This document shows, piece after piece, positions 28,754-62,179 of a stretch of DNA of 64,000 bases. A program made the position numbers and the translations under genes. Below the pieces are notes generated by a model, which saw only the letters and a list, made by a program, of their open reading frames with translations, did not search any database and was not told the origin of the DNA. Source of the DNA: an uncultured Prevotellaceae bacterium (GTDB lineage: Bacteria; Bacteroidota; Bacteroidia; Bacteroidales; Bacteroidaceae); assembly GCA_902780635.1 (NCBI GenBank), contig CACZGH010000007.1, forward strand, positions 1 through 64,000, read 5' to 3'. Position 1 is the stretch's first letter. Each line of letters begins with the position of its first letter.

Positions 28754-28830
28754 GATCTGACAATAGTTTGTGTTTAATGGGTCTACCTCCCCTCCTTTGG
28801 TGGGGGCAGGGGGAGGTGTCAGATCAGGGG
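28754..28830. repeat. Nested palindrome downstream of the small RNA
   Basis: Outer arms GATCTGACA (28754-28762) and TGTCAGATC (28817-28825) enclose an inner ACCTCCCC/GGGGGAGGT palindrome. A shorter relative lies at the same place behind the second small-RNA copy (52078-52125). Confidence 0.6.
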
Positions 28831-28849
28831 GAGTCAGTCATATATATAC

Positions 28850-28912
28850 AAAAAAAGGAGTACCGCCGTACTCCAACCTTTGTTAACCTTAAATCTAATA
28901 CTATGAAAAACA
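28850..28912 (-). ncRNA. Putative small RNA, copy A
   Basis: A candidate transcript of about 63 nt starts a few bases after the -7 box at 28918-28925. It ends in a terminator hairpin GGAGTAC/GTACTCC (28857-28863 with 28868-28874) followed by seven T. The 82 nt from 28844 to 28925 are identical to 52136-52217. No start codon with a sensible frame is contained. Identity of the whole unit including promoter and terminator argues for a functional RNA. I do not recognise a named family. Confidence 0.65.
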
Positions 28913-28917
28913 CGATG

Positions 28918-28949
28918 CAAAGGTAAAACAGAAAGCACAAATCTGCAAA
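28918..28949 (-). promoter_or_regulatory. Promoter of small RNA copy A
   Basis: TACCTTTG at 28918-28925 and TTTG at 28946-28949 on the minus strand, 20 nt apart. Copy B has the same elements with the same spacing. Confidence 0.7.
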
Positions 28950-28985
28950 TTTTTCTGTTTTTAAAGTGTAAAAATAACAATTTTC

Positions 28986-28999
28986 TTGATTTATATCAA
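28986..28999 (-). promoter_or_regulatory. Crp/Fnr-type box upstream of small RNA copy A
   Basis: TTGATTTATATCAA is a perfect TTGAT-N4-ATCAA dyad, the classic Fnr consensus. Its near edge is 60 nt from the -7 box, exactly as in copy B. The centre would lie near -80. No Crp/Fnr gene is in the window. Confidence 0.6.
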
Positions 29000-29134: not shown

Positions 29135-29166
29135 TTTGATTCATATCAATTTTTTATTTATATTTG
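29135..29166 (+). promoter_or_regulatory. Promoter of the 1173-residue secreted protein
   Basis: TATATTTG at 29159-29166 with TTTG at 29135-29138, spacing 20 nt. The leader to the ATG at 29263 is about 90 nt. Confidence 0.6.
29136..29149 (+). promoter_or_regulatory. Crp/Fnr-type box overlapping the promoter of the Big_2 protein gene
   Basis: TTGATTCATATCAA, again a perfect TTGAT-N4-ATCAA dyad. Its left half supplies the TTG of the -33 element. Confidence 0.55.
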
Positions 29167-29262: not shown

Positions 29263-32200
29263 ATGAAACATTTAAAACTACTATTCATGACAGTCTGCGC
29301 CCTCATGATGGGTGCCACTGCCTATGCGCAGGAGGACGTAACAGATACGTACCTCAAGAACGCCGACCTCAAATCTCTTGAGGGATGGGATTATGGCGAT
29401 CCATTTGGAGATGGTGTTTTCAATTACACTGACTGGAAGACTGACGGAGATGTTCCCGTCATCGAATTCTATCACTCATGGTCTGCCAATGCGGGTGCTG
29501 AGATTGGATCTACCAAAAATTTCCATTTCACACAGAAAGTAACTTTGCCTGCTGGTAACTATCGTTTAAAAGTGAACGGTTTCTACCGTGAGGGCAATGG
29601 TAATGGCACGAACACCAAGGCCTACATTTTCGCAGGTGAGAAACAACAGTTCATGGTGGGACTGAGCAGTTCAGGTGTAGCCTCTTACTCTGGTTCCAAC
29701 GATCTTTACAAAGCTGCTAACGCTTTCTCCAAAGGAGACTTCTCCAATGAGTTTGACTTCGATGTTGAGGAGGAGGCTGAAATCGAGATTGGTTTCCGTG
29801 GCTATATCGACACTTATTGCTCATGGTGTATCCTTGGTCCAGTGAAGCTCCTCAAGTATAGCATTGACGACTATCTTAATGACTACAACGCCAAGGCAGA
29901 TGAGGCAAAAGCTCTCTATAATGAGCCGATGAACAAAGACGTGCTGGCAGAATTGAAAGCTGCCGTTGTAGATCCGAAATCATTCAAACTGATCAAAGAA
30001 GTGACCGCAGCTATCCAGACACTGGAAGGAAAGATCGCAGCTGCTAAGCAAAGCATTGCTGACTATGCCGCCACCAAAGAAGCCTTCGACTCCTATGATG
30101 CCAAAGCAGCCGCACTCGATGCAGCTGGCAAGGCAGCTTACGATGCTGCTGTAGCCTCTATCAAGAGTGCTTATGACGCCCGGACGATGGAAGGCAATCA
30201 GGCTGAGGCAGTGAAAGCCGCATATGTAGAGGCCCTGAAGAAACAAACAGCTGCCGGTTCCGACTTTACAGAGTGTGCCCCCGCCACTTGGGTAGGACAG
30301 ACTGGAGGTTATCAAGGCAGATTTGAGCGCTACAACGCCAGTGACTGGAATCCTCCATTCGAGTATGATGGTGATGTGATGACCCAGACCATTGAAGGTT
30401 TACCCGAGGGTGCTTACAAGATTGTGCTTGAAGCTACCGCCTCCTTCACCTCTGGCCGTGGTTTCACCTGCAAGACTGGTGATGACTTAGCAGTCGTTTT
30501 CGCTAACAACCAATGCGTGAACCTTCCTGTTATTGACCGCGTAGCCATTAACAACGCCTCTGAATATGGCCCCTACGAGGTGATTGGCAAAGTGGGTGCT
30601 GATGGTGTTTTGAAGTATGGTATCCAGAAACTTGACATCTTAGGCGGCAACTGGTTTGTTGTCAACCTCCTCTCCATCACGAAGGTGGAATACATTCCCG
30701 TTGAGAGCATCAATGCTGCTGACGTGGAAGTGGAAGTCGACAAGACCGCAGAGATTGGCGCCAGCGTAGCTCCACAGAACGCTACCCTGCCACAGATCAT
30801 CTACACCTCTGCTGACGAAGCCATCGCTACTGTAGACAAGAGCGGTGTGGTGAAAGGTATCGCCGTGGGTAAGACTACTATCACGCTGAAAGCTGACGAT
30901 GTGGAGAAGACCATCAATGTCAATGTGGCCGCTCCCGCTGTTCTGCCAGAGAGCATCACTCTGAACCAAACAGAGATTGCCCTTAACGCAGGTGAGAACA
31001 CCACATTCACACTGACTGCTACCATTGCTCCTGCTGAAGCCAACCAGGAAGTGACATTTGCTTCAAGCAATGAGGCTATTGCCACTGTTTCTGCCGATGG
31101 TGTCATCACCGTCGCAGGCATCGGCGAGGCCACCATCACCGTGACGAGCAAAGCCAAGGAAGATGTGAAAGCCACTGCTAAAGTCACTGTCACCGCCGCT
31201 GAGATTAACAGCTATTTCGCCGAAGAGGTTGAAGATGGCGAGGACTACTGGATCATCAACGCTGCTACCGGCAAGTTCTTAGGTGGTGCCAACAGTTGGG
31301 GAACTCGTGCCTCTCTGATCAAGCATGGAATCCCATTCAAGGCCGTTGCAAAAGGTGAGAACGTGTTTAATCTCGATTCCTACACCTCTAATGGTGGCGA
31401 CAGCCACTTCTTAGCTGGCGAATGGATAGACGGTGCCGCTACTGACATCACCTTAGTGCCCCACTCTTCCACTAAGACGATCAAAGTAGGTGTCGACGAA
31501 TACACAGCAATCACTAATGCATTCAACCTGAAGATTGGTGACAATATGCTTGTCGCCAAGTGTAGCAACACTGAGGTAGACCTGAAAGCCGCCGATGAGA
31601 ATGACCTCTTCGCACAGTGGTACTTCGTCAGCAGAGGCGAAATGGTTGCGAACATGATGATGGCCGATGAGGAGCATCCTGCTGACGCCACCTTCCTGAT
31701 CAAGGACTTCAACTTCAGCCGCAACAACACCCAGTATGACGCATGGGAGATTACCACAGCAGGAAATGTGACGAACGCACAAAATCCTAAAGCTAACGAG
31801 AATCACTACAACTGGAACGTGGAATGCTACCACGGCACATTTGATATGATGCAGCCTATCGTTCTTCCTAACGGTAAATATCGTCTGAAGGCTCAGGGCT
31901 TCTACAGACAGGACGGCGAGGACAATGACAACATCGCTTACTTCTATGCCAACGACCAGAAACAGACCTTCCCATTGAAGACTGGTGCAGAGAACAGCAT
32001 GAATGAAGCTGCTGCTTCCTTCTCAAAGGGTCTGTACACCATCGAGCCTATCGAGGTGACTGTGACCGACTATCAGCTGAAGATTGGTGCTGCCAATCCT
32101 GTGAACACCGCCCTGTGGTGTATCTGGGATAACTTCGAGTTGGAGTGCCTCAGCATGGACAAGAATCAGGACGGCATTGAAGTGACTATCGGCAAGAACG

Positions 32201-32784
32201 GTTACGCCACCTTGTATTACAACTATCTCAACTTAGTGGTTCCCGAGGGTGTCACCGCCTTCACCGCCACCACGAATGCTGACAATAAGTTGCTGCTCAG
32301 CCCCATTGAGGAATCAGACAATGAATATCTCGACGATGACGAAAAATATGTGATTCCTGCAGCTACCGGCGTTGTGCTGAAAGGCGAGCCAGGCACGTAT
32401 AAGTTTAGAGTCATATATGATGCCTTCAATACTATCACTGATAATGAGTTGCTCGGTACCGACGAGGAGACTACTCTCGCAGAGGAAGGCTTCAAGTATT
32501 ACATGCTTGCCGTGAAGGACAACGACCCATCTACCATTGGCTTCTACTATCAGACAGCCGACGGCTCGAGCATTACCAACGGTGCCCACAAGGCTTACCT
32601 GAGAGTGGAAGGTTTGAGTGCTCCACAGATGTTCTCCATCACCGATCCTACGGGTATCTTCGATGTGACCACTGTCACCACTGAGAGCAATGAGGTATAC
32701 AGCATCTCTGGCGTGCGCATGAACAATCAGTCGCTGCAGAAGGGTCTGTACATCATCAATGGCAAGAAAGTTATCGTTAAATAA
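29263..32784 (+). CDS. Large secreted protein with Big_2 domains and a type IX sorting tail
   Basis: 1173 residues with a signal peptide (LKLLFMTVCALMMGATAYAQ). About 25-200 is a beta-sandwich region resembling a carbohydrate-binding module (FTQKVTLPAGNYRLKVNGFYR). About 200-330 is helical and alanine-rich. About 345-480 is a second sandwich. Two bacterial Ig-like (Big_2) domains follow at about 482-645, with IIYTSADEAIATVDKSGVVK and VTFASSNEAIATVSADGVIT. A later segment repeats the first sandwich (LPNGKYRLKAQGFYRQDGED, near 870). The last 30 residues (VYSISGVRMNNQSLQKGLYI, ending KVIVK) fit a type IX C-terminal domain. Likely a surface glycan- or matrix-binding protein; function inferred. 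Confidence 0.85.
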   Translation: MKHLKLLFMTVCALMMGATAYAQEDVTDTYLKNADLKSLEGWDYGDPFGDGVFNYTDWKTDGDVPVIEFYHSWSANAGAEIGSTKNFHFTQKVTLPAGNYRLKVNGFYREGNGNGTNTKAYIFAGEKQQFMVGLSSSGVASYSGSNDLYKAANAFSKGDFSNEFDFDVEEEAEIEIGFRGYIDTYCSWCILGPVKLLKYSIDDYLNDYNAKADEAKALYNEPMNKDVLAELKAAVVDPKSFKLIKEVTAAIQTLEGKIAAAKQSIADYAATKEAFDSYDAKAAALDAAGKAAYDAAVASIKSAYDARTMEGNQAEAVKAAYVEALKKQTAAGSDFTECAPATWVGQTGGYQGRFERYNASDWNPPFEYDGDVMTQTIEGLPEGAYKIVLEATASFTSGRGFTCKTGDDLAVVFANNQCVNLPVIDRVAINNASEYGPYEVIGKVGADGVLKYGIQKLDILGGNWFVVNLLSITKVEYIPVESINAADVEVEVDKTAEIGASVAPQNATLPQIIYTSADEAIATVDKSGVVKGIAVGKTTITLKADDVEKTINVNVAAPAVLPESITLNQTEIALNAGENTTFTLTATIAPAEANQEVTFASSNEAIATVSADGVITVAGIGEATITVTSKAKEDVKATAKVTVTAAEINSYFAEEVEDGEDYWIINAATGKFLGGANSWGTRASLIKHGIPFKAVAKGENVFNLDSYTSNGGDSHFLAGEWIDGAATDITLVPHSSTKTIKVGVDEYTAITNAFNLKIGDNMLVAKCSNTEVDLKAADENDLFAQWYFVSRGEMVANMMMADEEHPADATFLIKDFNFSRNNTQYDAWEITTAGNVTNAQNPKANENHYNWNVECYHGTFDMMQPIVLPNGKYRLKAQGFYRQDGEDNDNIAYFYANDQKQTFPLKTGAENSMNEAAASFSKGLYTIEPIEVTVTDYQLKIGAANPVNTALWCIWDNFELECLSMDKNQDGIEVTIGKNGYATLYYNYLNLVVPEGVTAFTATTNADNKLLLSPIEESDNEYLDDDEKYVIPAATGVVLKGEPGTYKFRVIYDAFNTITDNELLGTDEETTLAEEGFKYYMLAVKDNDPSTIGFYYQTADGSSITNGAHKAYLRVEGLSAPQMFSITDPTGIFDVTTVTTESNEVYSISGVRMNNQSLQKGLYIINGKKVIVK

Positions 32785-51977: not shown

Positions 51978-52036
51978 CAGGAGTTCAGGAGTTGGGGAGT
52001 GTAGGAGTTGAGGAGTGTAGGAGTTGAGGAGTTCAG
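51978..52036. repeat. GGAGTTGAGGAGTGTAGGAG-family repeat, fourth locus
   Basis: Units AGGAGTTGAGGAGTGTAGG and GAGGAGTTCAGACGTTAC. Same order relative to the small RNA as at 28681-28735. Confidence 0.75.
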
Positions 52037-52077
52037 ACGTTACTTTTTTTTGCGATACGATTATAGTATGAGTATCT

Positions 52078-52125
52078 ATCTCCCCTCCTTTGAAGGGGTC
52101 AGGGGGAGAGGGCTGATTAGGGGGT
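52078..52125. repeat. GC-rich palindrome downstream of small RNA copy B
   Basis: TCTCCCCTCC and GGGGGAGAG arms form a hairpin, matching the inner palindrome at 28792-28817. Confidence 0.6.
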
Positions 52126-52141
52126 ATTTAAGTAGATATAC

Positions 52142-52204
52142 AAAAAAAGGAGTACCGCCGTACTCCAACCTTTGTTAACCTTAAATCTAATACTATGAAA
52201 AACA
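52142..52204 (-). ncRNA. Putative small RNA, copy B
   Basis: Identical over 82 nt (52136-52217) to 28844-28925, including the -7 box, the transcript body and the terminator hairpin at 52149-52166 followed by seven T. The sequences flanking the 82 nt differ in many places, so exact conservation of the core suggests selection or recent copying. Confidence 0.65.
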
Positions 52205-52209
52205 CGATG

Positions 52210-52241
52210 CAAAGGTAGTGCCTTTCACCGTGTTTTGCAAA
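52210..52241 (-). promoter_or_regulatory. Promoter of small RNA copy B
   Basis: TACCTTTG at 52210-52217 and TTTG at 52238-52241 on the minus strand, 20 nt apart. The spacer sequence differs from copy A, while both boxes are kept. Confidence 0.7.
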
Positions 52242-52277: not shown

Positions 52278-52291
52278 TTGATTTATATCAA
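52278..52291 (-). promoter_or_regulatory. Crp/Fnr-type box upstream of small RNA copy B
   Basis: TTGATTTATATCAA, the same 14 bp as at 28986-28999 and at the same 60-nt distance from the -7 box. It overlaps the last codons and the stop of the gene ending at 52283. Confidence 0.6.
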
Positions 52292-55240
52292 GACCACCCC
52301 TTCTTGCTTCTTGCCGTCCATCATGATACGCAATGGTTTCGGGAAACGCACATGGCGCACATGAGCTGTCTCCTCCACAGCCGGCATGGCATCGAGATAT
52401 TCTTTCTGCCATATCCCATCGCCCGTATAGGTGTTGATGGTGAAATAGCCCACACCGAAACTGGTGAGGTTCTGGAAGAAGTGCGTGCCCTGACTGGGGT
52501 CGATGCGGTAGTTTTTGAGCGCCACCTCAGCGATGAGTTTGGCTGCACTGATATGTGGCCACTTGACAGGTATGCCCAGCCAATAGTCGCTCGACCCCCA
52601 TCGTCCAGGTCCTACAAGCACATAGTTGCGCCCCTCGGCAAGGAAGCGGCGGTTGATGCGCTCTATCTCCTCGGCGATGGCGGGATTGTTGGAGGCCGTA
52701 AAGTTGTCATCGGTCTTGACATACACCACATCGGTGATTTCTTCGTTGATGCCATGACCAAGAGACATGTGTGAGCGAAGCAGACACCGGTTGTCCTCGA
52801 TGGTGGCCAAGTCGATGTCGAGCATCTGTTTGGCGTCGACGATGGGACGTATCTGGAGCAGGTAGAAGTCGATGGTACGATTGGCGTTGACATTGCAGGC
52901 AAACTCTATCTCCACCGGCCGGTGCATGGCCTCAGCACCATACTTCATGGCCATCTGCATGATCTCAGGGAAGGGGAACACACCCTGCTGGAGCATACCC
53001 GCAAAAGTGATGACCTTACGCCCACCCTCGTAAATGCCGTCGCGGATGATCTGGTCGTAAGGGTCGTAGGTAGAGGCGAGGAAATTGAGCGACTTTTCCT
53101 TATCTGCCTCCTTGACACGCAGCCGGAGGATATTGAATCCATCGTCGACTTTGAAGTCCTCACCCATATTGGTCATGTCGAGAGCATAAAACTTGGTCTG
53201 CGTCTCGCGTAGCGCCGTCTCCATCTCGCTGGTCTGCAACACCTGATGAGGATGATAAGGACTGACGCGGAGTGTCTGTCCGCCATCAACGATATACTTG
53301 CCAAGACCCAGTGCGAGGCTGGCGATGCCATCCTCTGCCTTCTCGTCGCCGATAGGATAATAGTTGAGTGAGCGCAGCACACCACTTATATTTGGGTAGA
53401 AATGGTCGCCATACCTATTGCCCACCACTTCCTGAAGGATGACTGCCATCTTCTCCTGGTCGATGACGTTGCTGGTGGCGGTCATATATGCTTTAGAGTC
53501 GCTATAGTAAACCGACGCATAGACCGCCTTGATAGCACAGGCGAGCATGCGCAACATCTCATATTTGTCGTCGAGGAAAGGCACCATATAGGTGGAATAG
53601 ATGCCCGCGAAGGGCTGGTAATGGGCATCCTCGAGTAGCGACGACGACCTCACCGCGATAGGGCTCCGTGTGGCCTCGAAGAAGGTGAAGAAGTCGGCAA
53701 TGAGTTTGTCGGGCAACTGTGCTCGCAGAAAATGTCGCAGGATATCCTCGTCGGAGGCATCGCTGAGGGCTATCTGGTAGAGGTTGTTAGCATCCATGAA
53801 CTGGTCGAAGATGTCGGTACAGAGGACGACCGTCTTGGGTATAGACACGGAGGCATTCTCAAACTGGTTGAACTCAGGATGCCGTTTGACCACATGGTCG
53901 AGGAAAGCCAGTCCACGCCCTTTTCCGCCAAGCGACCCGTCGCCGATACGTGCGAAATGGGCGTAGCGGTCATACTTACCACGGTCGAAGACGGCCACGA
54001 CACCCACGTTTTTCATCTTTCGGTACTGCACGATGGCATCGAAGATGATTTGGCGGTGCGCGTCGACATTCTTAAGTTTATGCCAGGTGACATTTTTAAG
54101 AAATTGCGACACGGGGAAAATGGCCCTGGCACAGAGCCATCGGCTCACATGGTTGCGTGAGACATGATAGAGCATGCTGTCGTTGGGGATATTGAAGATA
54201 TTGTCTTGCAATTCCTTGAGACTGCGCACCCGCATGATCTCACGCTTGGTGACAGGGTCGCGGAAGATGAAGTCGCCGAAGCCCATGTGCTCTGCGAGCA
54301 GGTTGCGCAGGTCGATGTTCATCTTCTTGGAGTTTTTGTCGACATACAGGAACCCTTCGGCCTCTGCTTTCTCCTTGTTTTCCACCTCAGCGCTTTGGAG
54401 GATAACTGGCACGAACTCATTGCGCGCGCGTATCTCGCGGAGCAGTTTGAAACCGGCTTCCGGATCTTTCACACCATCTTTGGGGAAGCGCACGTCACTG
54501 ATGACACCCTGTGTGTTGTCGGCATATTTGTCATAAAAGGCGATAGCCTCCTCGTAGGTACGGGCAAGCACCACCTTGGGACGGCCGCGCTTACGCTGTG
54601 CGGCGGCATGTGGATTGAGGGCCTCGGTGGAGAAGCGCTGGCTCTGCAGGAGGATATAGCTGTAGAGATTGGGCAGCACCGACGAATAGAAGCGGATGCC
54701 ATCCTCGACGAGCAGAATCATCTGCACGCCAGCCTCCTCAATGTCGTGCTCGATGTTCATCTTGTCCTCCAGAAGCTTGATGATGGATAGGATAAGGTTG
54801 GTATCACCGAGCCAACAGAACACATAGTCGAAGATGGACATGTCCTCGTCCTGAATACGCCGGGTGATACCATGCGAGAAGGGGGTGAGCACGACGCAGG
54901 GCAGGTCGGGGAAGTCGGCCTTAATGTCACGTGCCACGGCGAAAGCGTCGTTGTCGGCATTGCCAGGCATACAGATCACGAGGTCGATATCCGTGTTCTC
55001 CAGCACTCGTCGTGCCTCCTCTGTTGTCGACACCTGCGTGAACGACGGTGGGTAGCGCATGCCGAGCTCCATATACTCGTCGAATAGCTTCTCGTCTACT
55101 CGACCGTCATCCTCGAGCATGAAGGCATCGTATGGGTTGGCCACAATGAGCACATTGAAGATACGGTGTGTCATCAGATGGATGAACGACACATCTTTGA
55201 GGTAAAATTTAGTCCATTCCTGGGGTATGATATTGTCCAT
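52283..55240 (-). CDS. Chimera of two receiver-like domains and a PEP/pyruvate-binding ATP-grasp domain
   Basis: 985 residues from the ATG at 55240; the ATG 30 codons upstream lies beyond the promoter. Residues about 28-150 (FNVLIVANPYDAFMLEDDG; DIDLVICMPGNADNDAFAV) and about 170-310 (VQMILLVEDGIRFYSSVLP; TQGVISDVRFPKDG; GFLYVDKNSKK) resemble response-regulator receiver folds. The second keeps candidate Asp and Lys residues. From about 450 on it matches the PEP synthase/PPDK N-terminal domain: GDGSLGGKGRGLAFLDHVV, SPIAVRSSSLLEDAHYQPFA, and later YLLQIRPI. The swivelling phosphohistidine domain and the PEP-binding TIM barrel are absent, so it is unlikely to make PEP. Ligand and output are unknown. 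Confidence 0.82.
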   Translation of the reverse strand: MDNIIPQEWTKFYLKDVSFIHLMTHRIFNVLIVANPYDAFMLEDDGRVDEKLFDEYMELGMRYPPSFTQVSTTEEARRVLENTDIDLVICMPGNADNDAFAVARDIKADFPDLPCVVLTPFSHGITRRIQDEDMSIFDYVFCWLGDTNLILSIIKLLEDKMNIEHDIEEAGVQMILLVEDGIRFYSSVLPNLYSYILLQSQRFSTEALNPHAAAQRKRGRPKVVLARTYEEAIAFYDKYADNTQGVISDVRFPKDGVKDPEAGFKLLREIRARNEFVPVILQSAEVENKEKAEAEGFLYVDKNSKKMNIDLRNLLAEHMGFGDFIFRDPVTKREIMRVRSLKELQDNIFNIPNDSMLYHVSRNHVSRWLCARAIFPVSQFLKNVTWHKLKNVDAHRQIIFDAIVQYRKMKNVGVVAVFDRGKYDRYAHFARIGDGSLGGKGRGLAFLDHVVKRHPEFNQFENASVSIPKTVVLCTDIFDQFMDANNLYQIALSDASDEDILRHFLRAQLPDKLIADFFTFFEATRSPIAVRSSSLLEDAHYQPFAGIYSTYMVPFLDDKYEMLRMLACAIKAVYASVYYSDSKAYMTATSNVIDQEKMAVILQEVVGNRYGDHFYPNISGVLRSLNYYPIGDEKAEDGIASLALGLGKYIVDGGQTLRVSPYHPHQVLQTSEMETALRETQTKFYALDMTNMGEDFKVDDGFNILRLRVKEADKEKSLNFLASTYDPYDQIIRDGIYEGGRKVITFAGMLQQGVFPFPEIMQMAMKYGAEAMHRPVEIEFACNVNANRTIDFYLLQIRPIVDAKQMLDIDLATIEDNRCLLRSHMSLGHGINEEITDVVYVKTDDNFTASNNPAIAEEIERINRRFLAEGRNYVLVGPGRWGSSDYWLGIPVKWPHISAAKLIAEVALKNYRIDPSQGTHFFQNLTSFGVGYFTINTYTGDGIWQKEYLDAMPAVEETAHVRHVRFPKPLRIMMDGKKQEGVVLI

Positions 55241-55267
55241 TATTATATCTCTACTGGTTTTTCTTTG

Positions 55268-55299
55268 CAAATTTATAAAATAACGAGCGTTTTTGCAAA
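55268..55299 (-). promoter_or_regulatory. Promoter of the receiver/ATP-grasp gene
   Basis: TAAATTTG on the minus strand at 55268-55275 with TTTG at 55296-55299, spacing 20 nt. The leader is about 25 nt. Confidence 0.6.
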
Positions 55300-55366
55300 T
55301 GAAATTAGAAAAAGCATTAACTGTAGGCAAAAAGTAAGAAAGGGCTCCAAAATAATCCCGCTTTTA

Positions 55367-56903: not shown

Positions 56904-58904
56904 TTATTGCTGTGCTGGCTGGTCAGTCTCTGTGGGCCAATAAGGATTCTGATACAGTGGACTTGCGGAGACAGAGCTGTGGTCGGAAGCTGTCAGCAAG
57001 AACTGTCTCAGCGGCAGTGGCTGCAGATAATAAGCCATGCGCCATGTGAGTCCTTTGGCATAACTATTATTGGTCATATTCACAACGTGCGGGCAGTGGT
57101 ACTCGCTGATGCTGCGCTGTGAGACATTGGAACTGCTGGTACCGTCGGCCACAAGGTCATTGTACCACGACTCCATGGTGGTGCCCCAGAGGTGTATACC
57201 CTCTGCGTAAACCGGTTTGGTGATCAACTGCTCATACGAACGCCAGCGCTTCAGGTCCATGTCTCTCAATCCCTCAGCAAGGAACTCACAACTACGTTCA
57301 CGACGGATGTTGTAAAGGATGGGGTCCGTCAAGACTTTTCCTGCGGTGTATGCACCCCAGTCGAGTGTCTCTTTCGACATATCAGTGGCGGCAATCGTCA
57401 CCTGTGGATTGAGTCCGTCGCCTGTGAATCCTGCACATTCACGCACCTTTTTCCAGTATTCCATGATTTTCCCTGCACCGAGATTCTTCGTCAGCATATA
57501 CTCAGCCTCGATATAGTTGAGCAGAGCCTCTGTGGCACGGAAGATGACACACACGTTGTAGCTTCCACCATTGGCGGTGAGCGAGCGGTCGAATGTCATA
57601 CCCTTACGGATGGCATAACCAGTGATATATCCGTCCTCAGCGTTGGCATTGGTGATATTGGGCACCGGCTCCGTTTCTGTCCAGTGCGTACCAGCCACAT
57701 CAGATACATTCTTGAAGCAGTTGACCTGTCCAGGCACTTTCAGCATGACAGCGAGGCGTGGATCACGATTGGCCACCACCTTGGCGATCTCAGAGTCATC
57801 GTATGCGAAAGAAGAGTTGTAGATGGGTTTTCCATCAGCCATCAGATAGCGCTCCACGAGAGAACGTGTGACACCCGTCCCGATGTTACCTTTCTCTACA
57901 GCCACCTCGATATCGTTCTGCACACCGAGCGATTTGCTATATTCACGCCACAGCAAGATTTCGCTCTTTCCTGCGCATGAGGTGGTTCCCCACAACTCCA
58001 GATATGGATTGCTCTGTCCTTCAGTCTGTGGCACCACGCCATTGTTGACCGTCAGACTTCCTTTGTATTTGTCGGCCACTTGCTCGGCTGCGGCGGCGGC
58101 AGTCTCAAAGAAATATTTGGCCTCATTATCCAGCGAGCCTGCAGGGAAGCTGTAGCCAGGATTTTTCTCTGCACCCGGCCATCCATTGCCTAAAGGCACA
58201 AATGGTGTGCCTGCGAAGTTGGTCAGCCATGAACCCATATAAAGAGCGACCCTCGATTTAAACAAGCGGGCCACATCCACAGAGATGCGTGTATGACGGC
58301 CTTCGAACCCATCCTTCATGTAAGTGGCTGCCGTGTCAAGGTTGTTGATGATGAAGCGCGCCACCTCGTTACAGGGCTGCCGGTTGCTGGCAGCCACGAG
58401 CACTGCCTCGTCATCGGGCAAAGCCTCTGTGAGAATGGGCAGGTCACCATATTTTTTCAGCAGTTCGAAATAGGCGTAAGCCCTAAAGAAATAGATCTCA
58501 CCAATATACTGGCGTATGTTGGTCTCATTGCCACTGATGGCGCCTTCTGACAGTTTTGTCTTGAGCTGTGCGAGTTGGAAATTGACATTGCGCACATTGC
58601 CCCACGACCAGTCGCCCTCAGACTGACTGGTGCGCCAGAGGTTGCTGGAGAACTTAGCGCTCGGTGAGCGTGATGCTTGCACGTCAGTATTGTTATCGTT
58701 GGTATAAGTACCGTAGTCCCATCCTCCATGTCCTGGCATAATGTCCTGATAGAAACGGTTGGCCACTGCCTGCACCTGGTCTTCACTGGTATAGAAGTTT
58801 TCTGGTGTGAGAGACGATGGTGGTTCTTGCTCCAAGTAGTCGTTACATGAGGTGATGCTTGCTGTGAGAGCCAATGCTATGAATGAAAAATGATATAGTT
58901 TCAT
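56904..58904 (-). CDS. SusD/RagB-family glycan-binding lipoprotein
   Basis: 666 residues from the ATG at 58904, which places a lipoprotein signal at the start (FIALALTASITSC); an ATG at 58937 overlaps the susC stop but adds 11 residues before it. The SusD start NDYLEQEPPSSLTPENFYTS is typical, then TPR-like helices (IGEIYFFRAYAYFELLKKYG), and near the end LRDMDLKRWRSYEQL and YLQPLPLRQFLL. It caps the SusC channel on the cell surface and hands glycans to it. Directly downstream of susC. Confidence 0.93.
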   Translation of the reverse strand: MKLYHFSFIALALTASITSCNDYLEQEPPSSLTPENFYTSEDQVQAVANRFYQDIMPGHGGWDYGTYTNDNNTDVQASRSPSAKFSSNLWRTSQSEGDWSWGNVRNVNFQLAQLKTKLSEGAISGNETNIRQYIGEIYFFRAYAYFELLKKYGDLPILTEALPDDEAVLVAASNRQPCNEVARFIINNLDTAATYMKDGFEGRHTRISVDVARLFKSRVALYMGSWLTNFAGTPFVPLGNGWPGAEKNPGYSFPAGSLDNEAKYFFETAAAAAEQVADKYKGSLTVNNGVVPQTEGQSNPYLELWGTTSCAGKSEILLWREYSKSLGVQNDIEVAVEKGNIGTGVTRSLVERYLMADGKPIYNSSFAYDDSEIAKVVANRDPRLAVMLKVPGQVNCFKNVSDVAGTHWTETEPVPNITNANAEDGYITGYAIRKGMTFDRSLTANGGSYNVCVIFRATEALLNYIEAEYMLTKNLGAGKIMEYWKKVRECAGFTGDGLNPQVTIAATDMSKETLDWGAYTAGKVLTDPILYNIRRERSCEFLAEGLRDMDLKRWRSYEQLITKPVYAEGIHLWGTTMESWYNDLVADGTSSSNVSQRSISEYHCPHVVNMTNNSYAKGLTWRMAYYLQPLPLRQFLLTASDHSSVSASPLYQNPYWPTETDQPAQQ

Positions 58905-58936
58905 GATCTTCTGTTTATTATTACGTGTTTTGTGCA

Positions 58937-61900
58937 TTAGAATGATACATTAAGACCGAATGCAAACGTCTTCTGGAGAGGATAACCATTGTTTTGGTTG
59001 ACAGAGGTTGACATCAGTTCAGGGTCAAACTGGTGTGGCATGTCAGTGATGGTAAAGAGATTTTCTGCGGAGACGAAGACACGCAGATTGCTGATGCCCC
59101 ATTGCTGTGTGAGCTTACGTGGCAGAGTGTATCCCAACTGCAGATTCTTCAGTCTCATATACGAGCCATCCATGAGGTAACGGGTCTGTGCCTGTTCGTT
59201 CTTGTCGCTGAACTGCACTCTGGGCAACCATGCATCCTGATTGGCTGTCTGGTATCCATTCTGCACTGACCATGTGTTGGCGTCTCTATAGTAGTCTTGC
59301 ACATCGGTGATACCGACGCTCCACCACTCCCATGAGTTGGTTGTACCGAAGAGATACTCCAGACCGCCGCCCCATGAGCCACCGATCCACCAGTCGCGCT
59401 TCATCACGCCCTGGAAGAAAGCAGAGATGTCGAATCCTTTCCATGCGGCGTTGAGGTTCAATCCCACGAGGTAGCGTGGTGTGGAGTTTCCGATGACCTT
59501 GAGGTCGCCGTGATCGTCCAGCGTCTGTGCGCCACGTGTGATTTGATGGTCTCCATTGATGTCACGATACATGATGTCGCCTGCTGCCCAGTTGCTGCCC
59601 AGTGAACTTTGGTCAGCATTGGCAAGATGTGAGTTCATCTCCTCGTCACTCTTGGCGATGCCAATGGTCTCAAATCCCCATATCTCATTGAGGTAACGTC
59701 CCTCGATATAATTGTTGATAGACTTGGTGGGGTTGTTCGGGTAGCGTGTAATCTTTGTGCGTGCGTCGGAGATATTGAAGGTGGCTCCATATGACAATCC
59801 GTTCTTGAGCACGTCGCGCCAACTGATTTGGAACTCCCATCCTGTGGTGCGAAGGTCGGTGTTGTTGGTCACAGGGACACTGGTACCAAGGATAGCAGGC
59901 AGTTCGGGTGCGTTGCCCACCATATCGAGTGTGTTGCGCACATAGAAGTCGAAGGTGGCCGTCAGTCGGTTGTTGAGGGCTCCGACATCAAAACCGACAT
60001 CATAGCTTTCCACTTTCTCCCATGTCAAGAGTGCTGAGACGAGGCTCGGTGCGCTGGTGGTGTTGGGTTTCACACCATTCTGCAGCCAGGTGCCAGCCAC
60101 GGAGTTGTAAGCAATGGTCTGATAGGTCTGATACCAGTTGTCGATGTTCTGGTTGCCAAGTGAGCCATAAGATGCTCTCAGTTTGAGCGTATTGACTTTA
60201 CCCACCAGGTTCTCCCAGAACTTCTCACGTGCGATGTTCCATCCCAATGACACAGATGGGAACAACTTCCACATCTTATCCGTACGGAAACGTGAGGTGC
60301 CATCGTAACGGAGGTTGGCCTCGAGGAGGTATTTCTCGTCGTAGTTGTAGTTGAAACGTCCGAAGAAACCGGCAGTCTGCCATTGATTGCGTGCGCCATT
60401 GACAGATGGCACGATGCTTTGTCCTGAATAGCTCAGTCCGTTGGTCAGGTCTACCTCAGGTTTGCTGGGATCGAGGATACCGTCACGTTGCATTCCAAAG
60501 ACCAGTCGTTTCAGTTGTTCGGTCTGGAAACCTCCCATCAGATGGAAGTTGTGTTTCTCAGCCAGTGACCATGTGTATTCTGTATACGCCTGGAAGTTCA
60601 GGTAGTTGTCCTTTGCCTCGTCCTCGTGCACATTGGAGCTTTGGTTGTAGATCACGGCTTCACCAGCCACATTGTGATTGTAAGTACGCTGGCTGTCCCA
60701 GTGTCTCACTGCGTTGTCTATCTTGTAGTTGAAGTCGATGTGAGTCACCCAGTTCTTTATCGGCTCTAGTACGAATCCGACCTGGTGGTTGATGACATCT
60801 CTCTCGGTAGTGTCTTTTCCGCCAGTCTCCAGTCCCAATGCCGGTGAGGGTGAGGAGTAGAGGTATCCATTGCGGTCGTAAAGGGGCAGCATAGGCCATC
60901 CCTGACGGGCCATGTCATTGTAGAGACCGTACCCTAACGTGGCTGGACGATGGTAATTGGTGCGTGTGAAACGCATATTATAGTTCATGCGGATCCACTT
61001 GGCCAGTTCGATGTTCATCTTGGCGGTACCGTTGTAGCGTTTATAGCCATCGCTACCCATATTCATGAAACCATCCTGATCGAGATAACCAACAGAAGCA
61101 TAGAAACTGAATTTATCGCTGCCACCGTTGACGCTGGCATTATGCTCCTGAGAGAAAGCAGAGCCTTTGTATACCACATCGTACCAGTCCACGTCGTCGA
61201 TACCATGTCCATAGCCGTCATCCCATGTCACGCCATTCTGTGAACCAATGGCATAGACTGTTTTGCCATCGGCGGTAAGGCGGGTGCCCGGACCGATAGG
61301 TTTGGCGTCATGATATTCTTTGATGGCAGCCATACGTTCAGCGTCAAAGAACACCGACTGTCCCTGATTGGTCTTGGCATCGTTGAGCCAGGAGGCGTAG
61401 TCAACGGAGTTCATCATGTGTTTGCCACGTATCAGACTGCTGAAACGGAAGCTGTTGTTATAATTAACCTTCACCTTGGTATCTTTACTACCACTCTTGG
61501 TGGTGACAAGAATGACGCCGAAGGGTGCACGGCTACCATAAATGCTCGATGCTGCGGCATCTTTCAGCACAGAGATGCTCTCGATATCCTGTGGATTGAT
61601 GGTGTTGAGGTCGCCCTCCATGCCATCAATGAGGATGAGCGGTGAGCCACTCGACCCCTCACCAATGGTAGCGGTACCACGCACATTGATAGCCGGAGAC
61701 GAGTCAAGCGTACCGCTGGTCGATGAAATTTGTAGTCCAGGTACAACACCCTGCAATGCCTGAGTGGCATTGGCGACGGGTCGCTGTGCCAGCTCGTCGC
61801 CATCGACGACAGACACTGCTCCTGTGAGGTTGACTTTTTTCTGTACACCAAATCCCACGACGACTACTTCACTCAGAGCCTTGGCGTCTTCCAGAAGTTT

Positions 61901-62179
61901 TACCTCCAAATAGTTTCCCGTCACCTTTACGGCTTGTGTCTTATAACCGATGTAAGACACTTCCAGCTCGGAACCCTTTTCTGCTTCGACAGTGAAATTT
62001 CCATCCAGGTCAGAGACCGCACCGGTAGCGCTTCCCTTTACTTTTACTGTGGCGCCGATGATTGGTTCGCCATTCACTTCCACGATTTTACCAGTAATCT
62101 TGCTCTGTGCCATTGCTACTGTCGAAGAAATAGCAAGCAACGCAAGAACTGTTAGTCTTCGCATTTTGTTTTTCATCAT
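58937..62179 (-). CDS. SusC/RagA-family TonB-dependent outer-membrane transporter
   Basis: 1080 residues with a signal peptide (LTVLALLAISSTVAMAQ). The CarboxypepD_reg domain is at about 26-105 (KITGKIVEVNGEPIIGATVK), then the LSEVVVVGFGVQKKVNLTGA region and the plug at about 115-235 (ALQGVVPGLQISSTSGTLDS; SIYGSRAPFGVILVTTKSG). The large barrel ends in the aromatic strand KTFAFGLNVSF. It imports oligosaccharides using TonB energy, with its SusD partner following. It lies 130 nt after the GH2 gene, on the same strand. Confidence 0.95.
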   Translation of the reverse strand: MMKNKMRRLTVLALLAISSTVAMAQSKITGKIVEVNGEPIIGATVKVKGSATGAVSDLDGNFTVEAEKGSELEVSYIGYKTQAVKVTGNYLEVKLLEDAKALSEVVVVGFGVQKKVNLTGAVSVVDGDELAQRPVANATQALQGVVPGLQISSTSGTLDSSPAINVRGTATIGEGSSGSPLILIDGMEGDLNTINPQDIESISVLKDAAASSIYGSRAPFGVILVTTKSGSKDTKVKVNYNNSFRFSSLIRGKHMMNSVDYASWLNDAKTNQGQSVFFDAERMAAIKEYHDAKPIGPGTRLTADGKTVYAIGSQNGVTWDDGYGHGIDDVDWYDVVYKGSAFSQEHNASVNGGSDKFSFYASVGYLDQDGFMNMGSDGYKRYNGTAKMNIELAKWIRMNYNMRFTRTNYHRPATLGYGLYNDMARQGWPMLPLYDRNGYLYSSPSPALGLETGGKDTTERDVINHQVGFVLEPIKNWVTHIDFNYKIDNAVRHWDSQRTYNHNVAGEAVIYNQSSNVHEDEAKDNYLNFQAYTEYTWSLAEKHNFHLMGGFQTEQLKRLVFGMQRDGILDPSKPEVDLTNGLSYSGQSIVPSVNGARNQWQTAGFFGRFNYNYDEKYLLEANLRYDGTSRFRTDKMWKLFPSVSLGWNIAREKFWENLVGKVNTLKLRASYGSLGNQNIDNWYQTYQTIAYNSVAGTWLQNGVKPNTTSAPSLVSALLTWEKVESYDVGFDVGALNNRLTATFDFYVRNTLDMVGNAPELPAILGTSVPVTNNTDLRTTGWEFQISWRDVLKNGLSYGATFNISDARTKITRYPNNPTKSINNYIEGRYLNEIWGFETIGIAKSDEEMNSHLANADQSSLGSNWAAGDIMYRDINGDHQITRGAQTLDDHGDLKVIGNSTPRYLVGLNLNAAWKGFDISAFFQGVMKRDWWIGGSWGGGLEYLFGTTNSWEWWSVGITDVQDYYRDANTWSVQNGYQTANQDAWLPRVQFSDKNEQAQTRYLMDGSYMRLKNLQLGYTLPRKLTQQWGISNLRVFVSAENLFTITDMPHQFDPELMSTSVNQNNGYPLQKTFAFGLNVSF

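What the first reader, a model, noticed from the sequence alone, without database searches (positions are those of the whole stretch)
28844..28999. Duplicated small-RNA unit with a Crp/Fnr-type box, copy A
Seen: 82 nt (28844-28925) are identical to 52136-52217 and hold a -7 box, a transcript of about 63 nt and a strong terminator. Beyond them the flanks diverge, yet the -33 TTTG keeps its 20-nt spacing and a perfect TTGAT-N4-ATCAA dyad lies 60 nt upstream in both copies. Known: this dyad is the Fnr consensus. Inferred: two sister small RNAs under a redox- or ligand-responsive Crp/Fnr regulator, possibly a wider family in this genome.
Basis: partly seen in the sequence, partly recalled or inferred. 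Interest (0 to 1): 0.78.

Follow-up and report, generated by a model that had tools for sequence, protein, structure and literature searches.

The report
FopS small RNAs with swapped switch
The repeated 82 bases encode two copies of FopS, a known small RNA of gut Bacteroides that limits sugar-uptake proteins; new here is that in Prevotella-group bacteria many of these genes carry a strictly placed Fnr-like switch site where relatives carry a different one, so a conserved RNA seems to have changed its controller.

Summary
28844-28925 and 52136-52217 are identical and encode minus-strand small RNAs. The RNA is not new: Rfam RF04319 (FopS) matches both at 78.2 bits (cut-off 56), and the genome holds five copies. 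FopS is a studied B. thetaiotaomicron family that represses SusC translation (PMC11697453). The dyad is the new part. In the window's genus (Prevotella, wide sense) 23 of 59 FopS copies carry TTGATN4ATCAA (at most 1 mismatch) near -80; shuffles give 0.04. In a capped scan of public genomes that left 55-75 bases free, 118 of 118 hits used 63-65, with dissimilar flanks and a constrained WTAW centre. In 81 copies from outside the genus the site is absent there; instead the Cur/BT4338-type dyad is centred near -28 (38 of 62) or, in sister genera, near -60 (8 of 19). So FopS appears to have moved between Crp/Fnr-type regulators. A Cur-like protein is missing from 4 of 10 surveyed genomes that have the TTGAT site. 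Candidates present in 10 of 10: a short Crp/Fnr protein with helix PETLSR (favoured) and an RLxVS family. Redox sensing is not supported. Regulator, sign and targets are inferred.

The parts
28847..28913 (-). FopS small RNA, copy A
   Evidence: RF04319, 78.2 bits, cut-off 56
52139..52205 (-). FopS small RNA, copy B
   Evidence: RF04319, 78.2 bits
28857..28874 (-). terminator hairpin of copy A, followed by the U-run at 28850-28856
   Evidence: sequence and fold
52149..52166 (-). terminator hairpin of copy B
   Evidence: same sequence as copy A
28918..28925 (-). -7 box TACCTTTG, copy A
   Evidence: sequence
52210..52217 (-). -7 box TACCTTTG, copy B
   Evidence: sequence
28946..28949 (-). -33 TTTG, copy A
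   Evidence: sequence
52238..52241 (-). -33 TTTG, copy B
   Evidence: sequence
28986..28999 (.). TTGATTTATATCAA dyad, centre -79.5 from FopS A
   Evidence: conserved position in relatives
52278..52291 (.). TTGATTTATATCAA dyad, centre -79.5 from FopS B; it contains the stop codon (52283-52285) of the upstream PPDK-like gene
29136..29149 (.). second dyad, TTGATTCATATCAA, centred at -28.5 relative to a TATATTTG on the + strand, upstream of ORF 29263-32784

Best explanation
The two 82-nt copies are FopS small-RNA genes of a Prevotella-group bacterium. Each is transcribed from a -33/-7 Bacteroides-type promoter and ends at a hairpin plus U-run. In this genus most short-bodied FopS copies are controlled by a Crp/Fnr-type dimer that binds TTGATWTAWATCAA about 80 bp upstream, a distance that fits activation from upstream of RNA polymerase (class-I-like). 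In other Bacteroidales the same RNA often has instead a dyad of the type bound by the carbohydrate master regulator Cur (BT4338), centred near -28 or -60. FopS has thus been moved from one Crp/Fnr-type controller to another while the RNA stayed nearly unchanged. The favoured Prevotella controller is the short Crp/Fnr protein with helix PETLSR. Shown here: RNA identity, dyad, fixed spacing, site swap, and which regulator genes are present in the genomes surveyed. Inferred: binding, activation rather than repression, the signal, and (from B. thetaiotaomicron) repression of SusC-type transporters.
For: RNA: RF04319 at 78.2 bits, five copies. Dyad near -80 in 23 of 59 genus copies, in 18 of 24 genomes, shuffle mean 0.04, largest 1 in 200 trials. 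118 of 118 genome hits at 63-65 free bases of 55-75 allowed; 94 clusters at 70% identity; mean identity 0.29 in the 40 nt above the dyad, 0.40 in the first 45 nt below it, 0.86 in the RNA; centre TA nearly fixed, T 114 and A 111 of 118. Cur-type dyad in 38 of 62 copies near -28 outside the family, 8 of 19 near -60 in sister genera, 0 of 59 in the genus. A Cur-like protein is missing from G003, G008, G009 and G016, which keep the dyad. The PETLSR protein is the best match of the query in 9 of 9 other dyad genomes surveyed, at 68-84% identity, with identical helix.
Against: No binding or expression data. 36 of 59 genus copies lack the dyad at that place. PETLSR relatives also occur in G188 (51%) and G281 (45%), whose sampled FopS copies lack the TTGAT site, whereas the RLxVS family is in 10 of 10 dyad genomes without a close match among the proteins fetched from the five other genomes. 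Regulators of dyad-less genus genomes were not surveyed. The dyad shows a similar excess over its reversed control in many order genomes, so a genome-wide regulon is not shown. The target test was negative. Cur-type sites are not rare in every Prevotella-group genome: G009 has 7, G350 has 8.
Confidence: 0.6

Rival explanations
1. The RLxVS-type Crp/Fnr family (G000 contig 14) and not PETLSR binds the TTGAT dyad.
For: A relative is the best match in all nine other dyad genomes surveyed, at 37-48% identity, and the best match among proteins fetched from the five non-genus genomes is much weaker (at most 98 bits against 142-225); its distribution follows the site better than that of PETLSR.
Against: Its presumed recognition helix varies (RLNVSR, RLDVSK, RLNVSH, RLNISK, RLDVSV, RRDVSK, RLNLSR), while the dyad is nearly fixed; it lacks the glutamate that FNR uses for TTGA (FNR residues from recall). 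The G016 copy could not be read through. Not all Crp/Fnr proteins of G188 and G281 were fetched.
Confidence: 0.25
2. The Cur (BT4338) ortholog itself controls Prevotella FopS: its DNA preference drifted from ATGTT-nTAn-AACAT to TTGAT-WTAW-ATCAA and the site moved.
For: The two dyads share the TA centre and differ at two places per half-site. A Cur-like protein is in 6 of 10 dyad genomes.
Against: It is missing from four dyad genomes of 90-99% completeness (G003, G008, G009, G016). The helix TTSNAIRTL is the same in G023, G350, G011 and G015 as in G188 and G281, which have Cur-type sites; only the window genome has TTGNAIRTL.
Confidence: 0.08
3. The dyad is not an operator: it was copied along with a mobile or duplicated FopS cassette.
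For: A and B share 29 of 37 positions between dyad and -33 box and a downstream repeat, so they are duplicates. FopS cores occur on 15 viral contigs.
Against: Across species the sequence around the dyad is near random while dyad, centre and spacing hold. None of the 15 viral contigs has the dyad near -80.
Confidence: 0.02

Closest known systems
FopS, family of paralogous sRNAs (Rfam RF04319), B. thetaiotaomicron, PMC11697453 (passages read)
   Same: RNA sequence and terminator hairpin score above the family cut-off; -7 box; several paralogs per genome
   Different: 5 copies instead of 14; three of the five have a TTGAT dyad centred at -79.5, a site not mentioned in the passages read
GibS sRNA (RF04182), PMC7366714 (passages read)
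   Same: Shares the 5' seed region
   Different: 40 bits against a cut-off of 115; not a member
Cur/BT4338 regulon of Bacteroides, with MasB as a published Cur-activated sRNA (PMC6989115, PMC3878776, PMC10994844; passages read)
   Same: A Crp/Fnr-type dyad with a TA centre upstream of an sRNA
   Different: TTGAT instead of ATGTT half-sites, near -80 instead of -28 or -60; 0 of 59 genus copies have the Cur-type site there
E. coli FNR operator (consensus from recall)
   Same: TTGATN4ATCAA
   Different: The candidate protein lacks an N-terminal cysteine cluster and fails the Fnr model; four centre bases constrained to WTAW

Membership tests
FopS (RF04319) | Score above the curated cut-off | tested here: met
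   78.2 bits against 56 for both copies
FopS (RF04319) | 3' terminator hairpin and U-run | tested here: met
   (copy A; copy B has the same sequence)
FopS (RF04319) | Bacteroides-type -33/-7 promoter | tested here: met
   TTTG-N20-TACCTTTG in both
FopS (RF04319) | Several paralogs in one genome | tested here: met
   5 copies
FopS (RF04319) | Pairs with susC translation starts | tested here: inconclusive
   30 of 60 Plug-domain genes tested: mean z -0.35, mean energy like random windows
FopS (RF04319) | Bound by RbpB; transcript made | not testable with these tools
   needs RNA and protein experiments
GibS (RF04182) | Score above the curated cut-off | tested here: not met
   40 against 115 bits
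FNR regulon (E. coli type) | TTGATN4ATCAA operator | tested here: met
FNR regulon (E. coli type) | A true Fnr protein with iron-sulfur cysteines as the regulator | tested here: not met
   for the favoured candidate: 20 against 228 bits, no N-terminal cysteine cluster
Cur/BT4338 regulon (window copies) | TATGTTnTAnAACATA-like site near -28 or -60 | tested here: not met
   0 of 59 genus copies, the window's two included

The most novel reading that the evidence does not exclude
FopS is a direct target of Crp/Fnr-type global regulators across Bacteroidales: Cur in many families, and in Prevotella a different, uncharacterised Crp/Fnr protein (PETLSR helix). A conserved multicopy sRNA that limits glycan transporters has been handed from one global controller to another by exchange of operators at fixed promoter positions, and this protein is the unnamed regulator of FopS in Prevotella.
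Probability: 0.42. Interest if true: 0.72.

Novelty: new variant of a known kind. Interest (0 to 1): 0.55.

Why it matters
The published FopS work leaves its transcriptional regulator open (PMC11697453, passages). The site pattern gives concrete candidates, Cur outside Prevotella and a short Crp/Fnr protein inside it, and so may link the master control of carbohydrate use to the sRNAs that hold back SusC transporters. It would also be a clear case of operator swapping at a conserved sRNA, visible in sequence alone, in a group important for fibre use in gut and rumen.

Tried and rejected
New sRNA family: rejected (RF04319). Redox Fnr: not supported. Genome-wide excess of the dyad as proof of a Prevotella regulon: rejected, since 197 of 198 order genomes hold the dyad and many show a similar excess over the reversed control. 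Targets: a 23-nt complement of the FopS seed, up to 3 mismatches, matched only four places, all FopS genes; duplex test negative. Phage origin: 15 viral contigs hold a FopS core, none with the dyad near -80, two with a Cur-type site at -60.5; not followed further. A second non-coding unit under the dyad elsewhere in the genome: Rfam matches only below cut-off.

Literature: the listings, and the passages I read, showed no paper that ties FopS to Cur, to a Crp/Fnr site or to Prevotella. Only open-licence papers are held. (whole word) missed the one text mention of Cur in PMC11697453, which one search shows to be a phenotype comparison. Supplementary tables, where Cur ChIP peaks would be listed, were not open to me. 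PMC10294740 (passages) names three sRNAs near Cur sites (BTnc140, BTnc195, BTnc364); I could not tell whether any is a FopS.

One search repeats it by best BLASTP match per genome without the motif.

Full report
WHAT IS THERE. Positions 28844-28925 and 52136-52217 are identical over 82 nt and differ at the next base on both sides. On the minus strand each holds TACCTTTG, an RNA of about 67 nt and a hairpin followed by seven U. A TTTG lies 20 nt above the -7 box and a perfect TTGATTTATATCAA dyad 60 nt above it, so that the dyad centre is 79.5 nt upstream of the first RNA base in both.

THE RNA IS KNOWN. Rfam release 15 names both copies BTncRNA_FopS, RF04319, 78.2 bits against a cut-off of 56. 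The genome has five copies, all above cut-off. FopS was described in B. [quoted passage not shown] passages read). GibS, which shares the seed, scores 40 against 115 and is not the match.

WHICH ORGANISM. The contigs are unnamed. A stretch of one genome placed in the same genus (G011) is identical over 1266 nt to Prevotella illustrans A2931, and the 80 listed public loci with the dyad-plus-FopS pattern are mostly titled Prevotella, Segatella, Xylanibacter, Hoylesella, Paraprevotella, Prevotellaceae or Bacteroidaceae; one record is titled Clostridium sp.. I therefore call the window's genus Prevotella in the wide sense.

THE DYAD HAS A FIXED PLACE. I collected FopS copies with upstream DNA: the 67 hits (completed; one dropped because it lies at a contig end), the 30 loci returned, and 40 further regions chosen from its truncated list. 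This gave 140 distinct upstreams from 73 genomes. In the window's genus 23 of 59 copies have the dyad with at most one mismatch, 14 of them exact, between -82.5 and -75; dinucleotide shuffles give a mean of 0.04 and at most 1 in 200 trials. 18 of the 24 genomes with usable copies have at least one such copy. They fall into 94 clusters at 70% identity; the 40 nt above the dyad agree at 0.29 on average, the first 45 nt below it at 0.40, the RNA at 0.86; and the four centre bases, free in the search, are nearly always WTAW (T in 114 and A in 111 of 118 at the two middle places). This is what a bound operator looks like, not a drifting repeat.

ONE CLASS OF FOPS HAS IT. In the genus the dyad is on 21 of 34 copies with the short body and on 2 of 25 with the long body (ATTATTAAGG). 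In the window genome it is on copies A, B and a third at contig position 186497 (which has a further dyad at -110.5), not on the copies on contigs 19 and 2.

OUTSIDE THE GENUS THE SITE IS DIFFERENT. The published Cur/BT4338 consensus is TATGTTnTAnAACATA (PMC3878776, PMC6989115; passages). With at most two mismatches it is centred at -32..-26 in 38 of 62 copies from 46 genomes outside the family, at -62..-59 in 3 of 62, and in two sister genera (3 genomes) at -62..-59 in 8 of 19 and at -32..-26 in 2 of 19; shuffle means are 0.03 or less. It is at neither place in any of the 59 genus copies, and the TTGAT dyad is near -80 in none of the 81 others. The outside copies are mostly the best-scoring ones, not a random draw, and none is named, so I cannot say which, if any, is B. 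thetaiotaomicron. Among 18 genomes chosen by me, Cur-type sites (at most one mismatch) number 0-2 in seven of nine genus genomes (G009 has 7, G350 has 8; reversed controls 0-5) and 4-14 in the nine others (reversed controls 0-10).

WHO BINDS IT. I surveyed Crp/Fnr proteins (PF00027) in ten genus genomes that have the FopS dyad, out of 18 such genomes, and in five genomes outside the genus; 62 proteins were translated. A protein of about 198 aa ending in PETLSRVR is, by best BLASTP match, in 10 of 10 with the same helix, at 68-84% identity to the window genome's copy; relatives with the same helix are in G188 (51%) and G281 (45%), and only distant matches (27-28%) in G282, G331 and G379. By recall, E. 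coli FNR reads TTGA with E, S and R in VETISR; that the registers match is my inference, since Pfam's Crp-type HTH models did not match this protein. A Cur-like protein (NAIRTL helix; best PDB match of the window genome's copy is 2gau, E 3.1e-51, which PMC12040651 identifies as CrpPg of Porphyromonas gingivalis, passages) is in 6 of 10 and missing from four dyad genomes of 90-99% completeness. I take it as the Cur ortholog because it is in all five outside genomes and has weak Cur-type sites upstream of 4 of 11 members, against 0 of 28 other proteins scanned; I had no BT4338 sequence to prove it. The RLxVS family is also in 10 of 10 dyad genomes, at 37-48% identity, with weaker matches outside, but its presumed helix varies. 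So co-occurrence favours RLxVS, and helix constancy and the FNR-like residues favour PETLSR; I favour PETLSR without certainty.

HOW IT PROBABLY WORKS. A dimer of the PETLSR protein, with an unknown ligand on its cNMP-type domain, binds about 80 bp upstream and helps RNA polymerase start FopS. FopS then, as in B. thetaiotaomicron, would block translation of transporter mRNAs. Sign and signal are inferred. Other dyads in this genome lie upstream of a DcuA/DcuB-type transporter gene (-39.5 from a TAnnTTTG), pyruvate phosphate dikinase (-101.5), a TonB receptor (-21.5) and ORF 29263 in the window (-28.5), which would suit a regulator of carbon metabolism, but these are single observations, and several of the 21 dyads fall inside open reading frames. 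A duplex test of FopS against 30 of 60 Plug-domain gene starts gave no overall signal (mean z -0.35).

NOVELTY. The RNA family is known. The Prevotella operator, its fixed place and the exchange with the Cur-type site did not turn up in the searches listed. MasB is a published sRNA under Cur (PMC10994844, passages), so sRNA control by this regulator class is not new in kind. I rate it a new variant of a known kind.

Noticed in passing
L083:2087-2312 (G000 contig 13, about 80072-80297, + strand): A non-coding stretch with a TACCTTTG promoter whose TTGAT dyad is also centred at -79.5, FopS-like seed words and a strong terminator; only sub-cut-off Rfam matches (GibS 27.5 of 115 bits, BTnc231 24.7 of 80.4). 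Possibly another sRNA under the same switch.
   Followed up: partly
window 28790-28815 and 52083-52108: G+C-rich repeat CCCTCCTTTGNNGGGGNCAGGGGGAG about 30 nt past both FopS terminators; among 370 loci searched it occurs only in the four that cover these two places. An 8-nt AGGAGTTn tandem repeat lies at 51979-52041.
   Followed up: partly
window 29136-29149: A further TTGAT dyad at -28.5 of a TATATTTG, upstream of ORF 29263-32784 (Big_2 and DUF5013 domains): the position where the Cur-type dyad sits at FopS in other families.
   Followed up: partly
window 56904-62179: A SusC/SusD pair (TIGR04056 907.5 bits; SusD_RagB), the gene type FopS is known to target; the susC start showed no special pairing with FopS (z -0.93).
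   Followed up: partly
window 52278-52291: The dyad of copy B contains the stop codon of the PPDK-like gene 52283-55330; DNA of this gene beside FopS aligns at 77-84% with several public Prevotella-group loci.
   Followed up: no
long-bodied FopS copies of the genus, e.g. L004 upstream of 1284: Many of the 23 long-body copies without the dyad share another upstream stretch (TTAAATGGAACGG ... TTTAAnnAnTGTTAA), perhaps a second control site.
   Followed up: no
G015 contig 1 near 2792777-2793023; G023 contig 1 near 2182161-2182407: Two FopS genes in tandem about 180 nt apart in two genomes.
   Followed up: no
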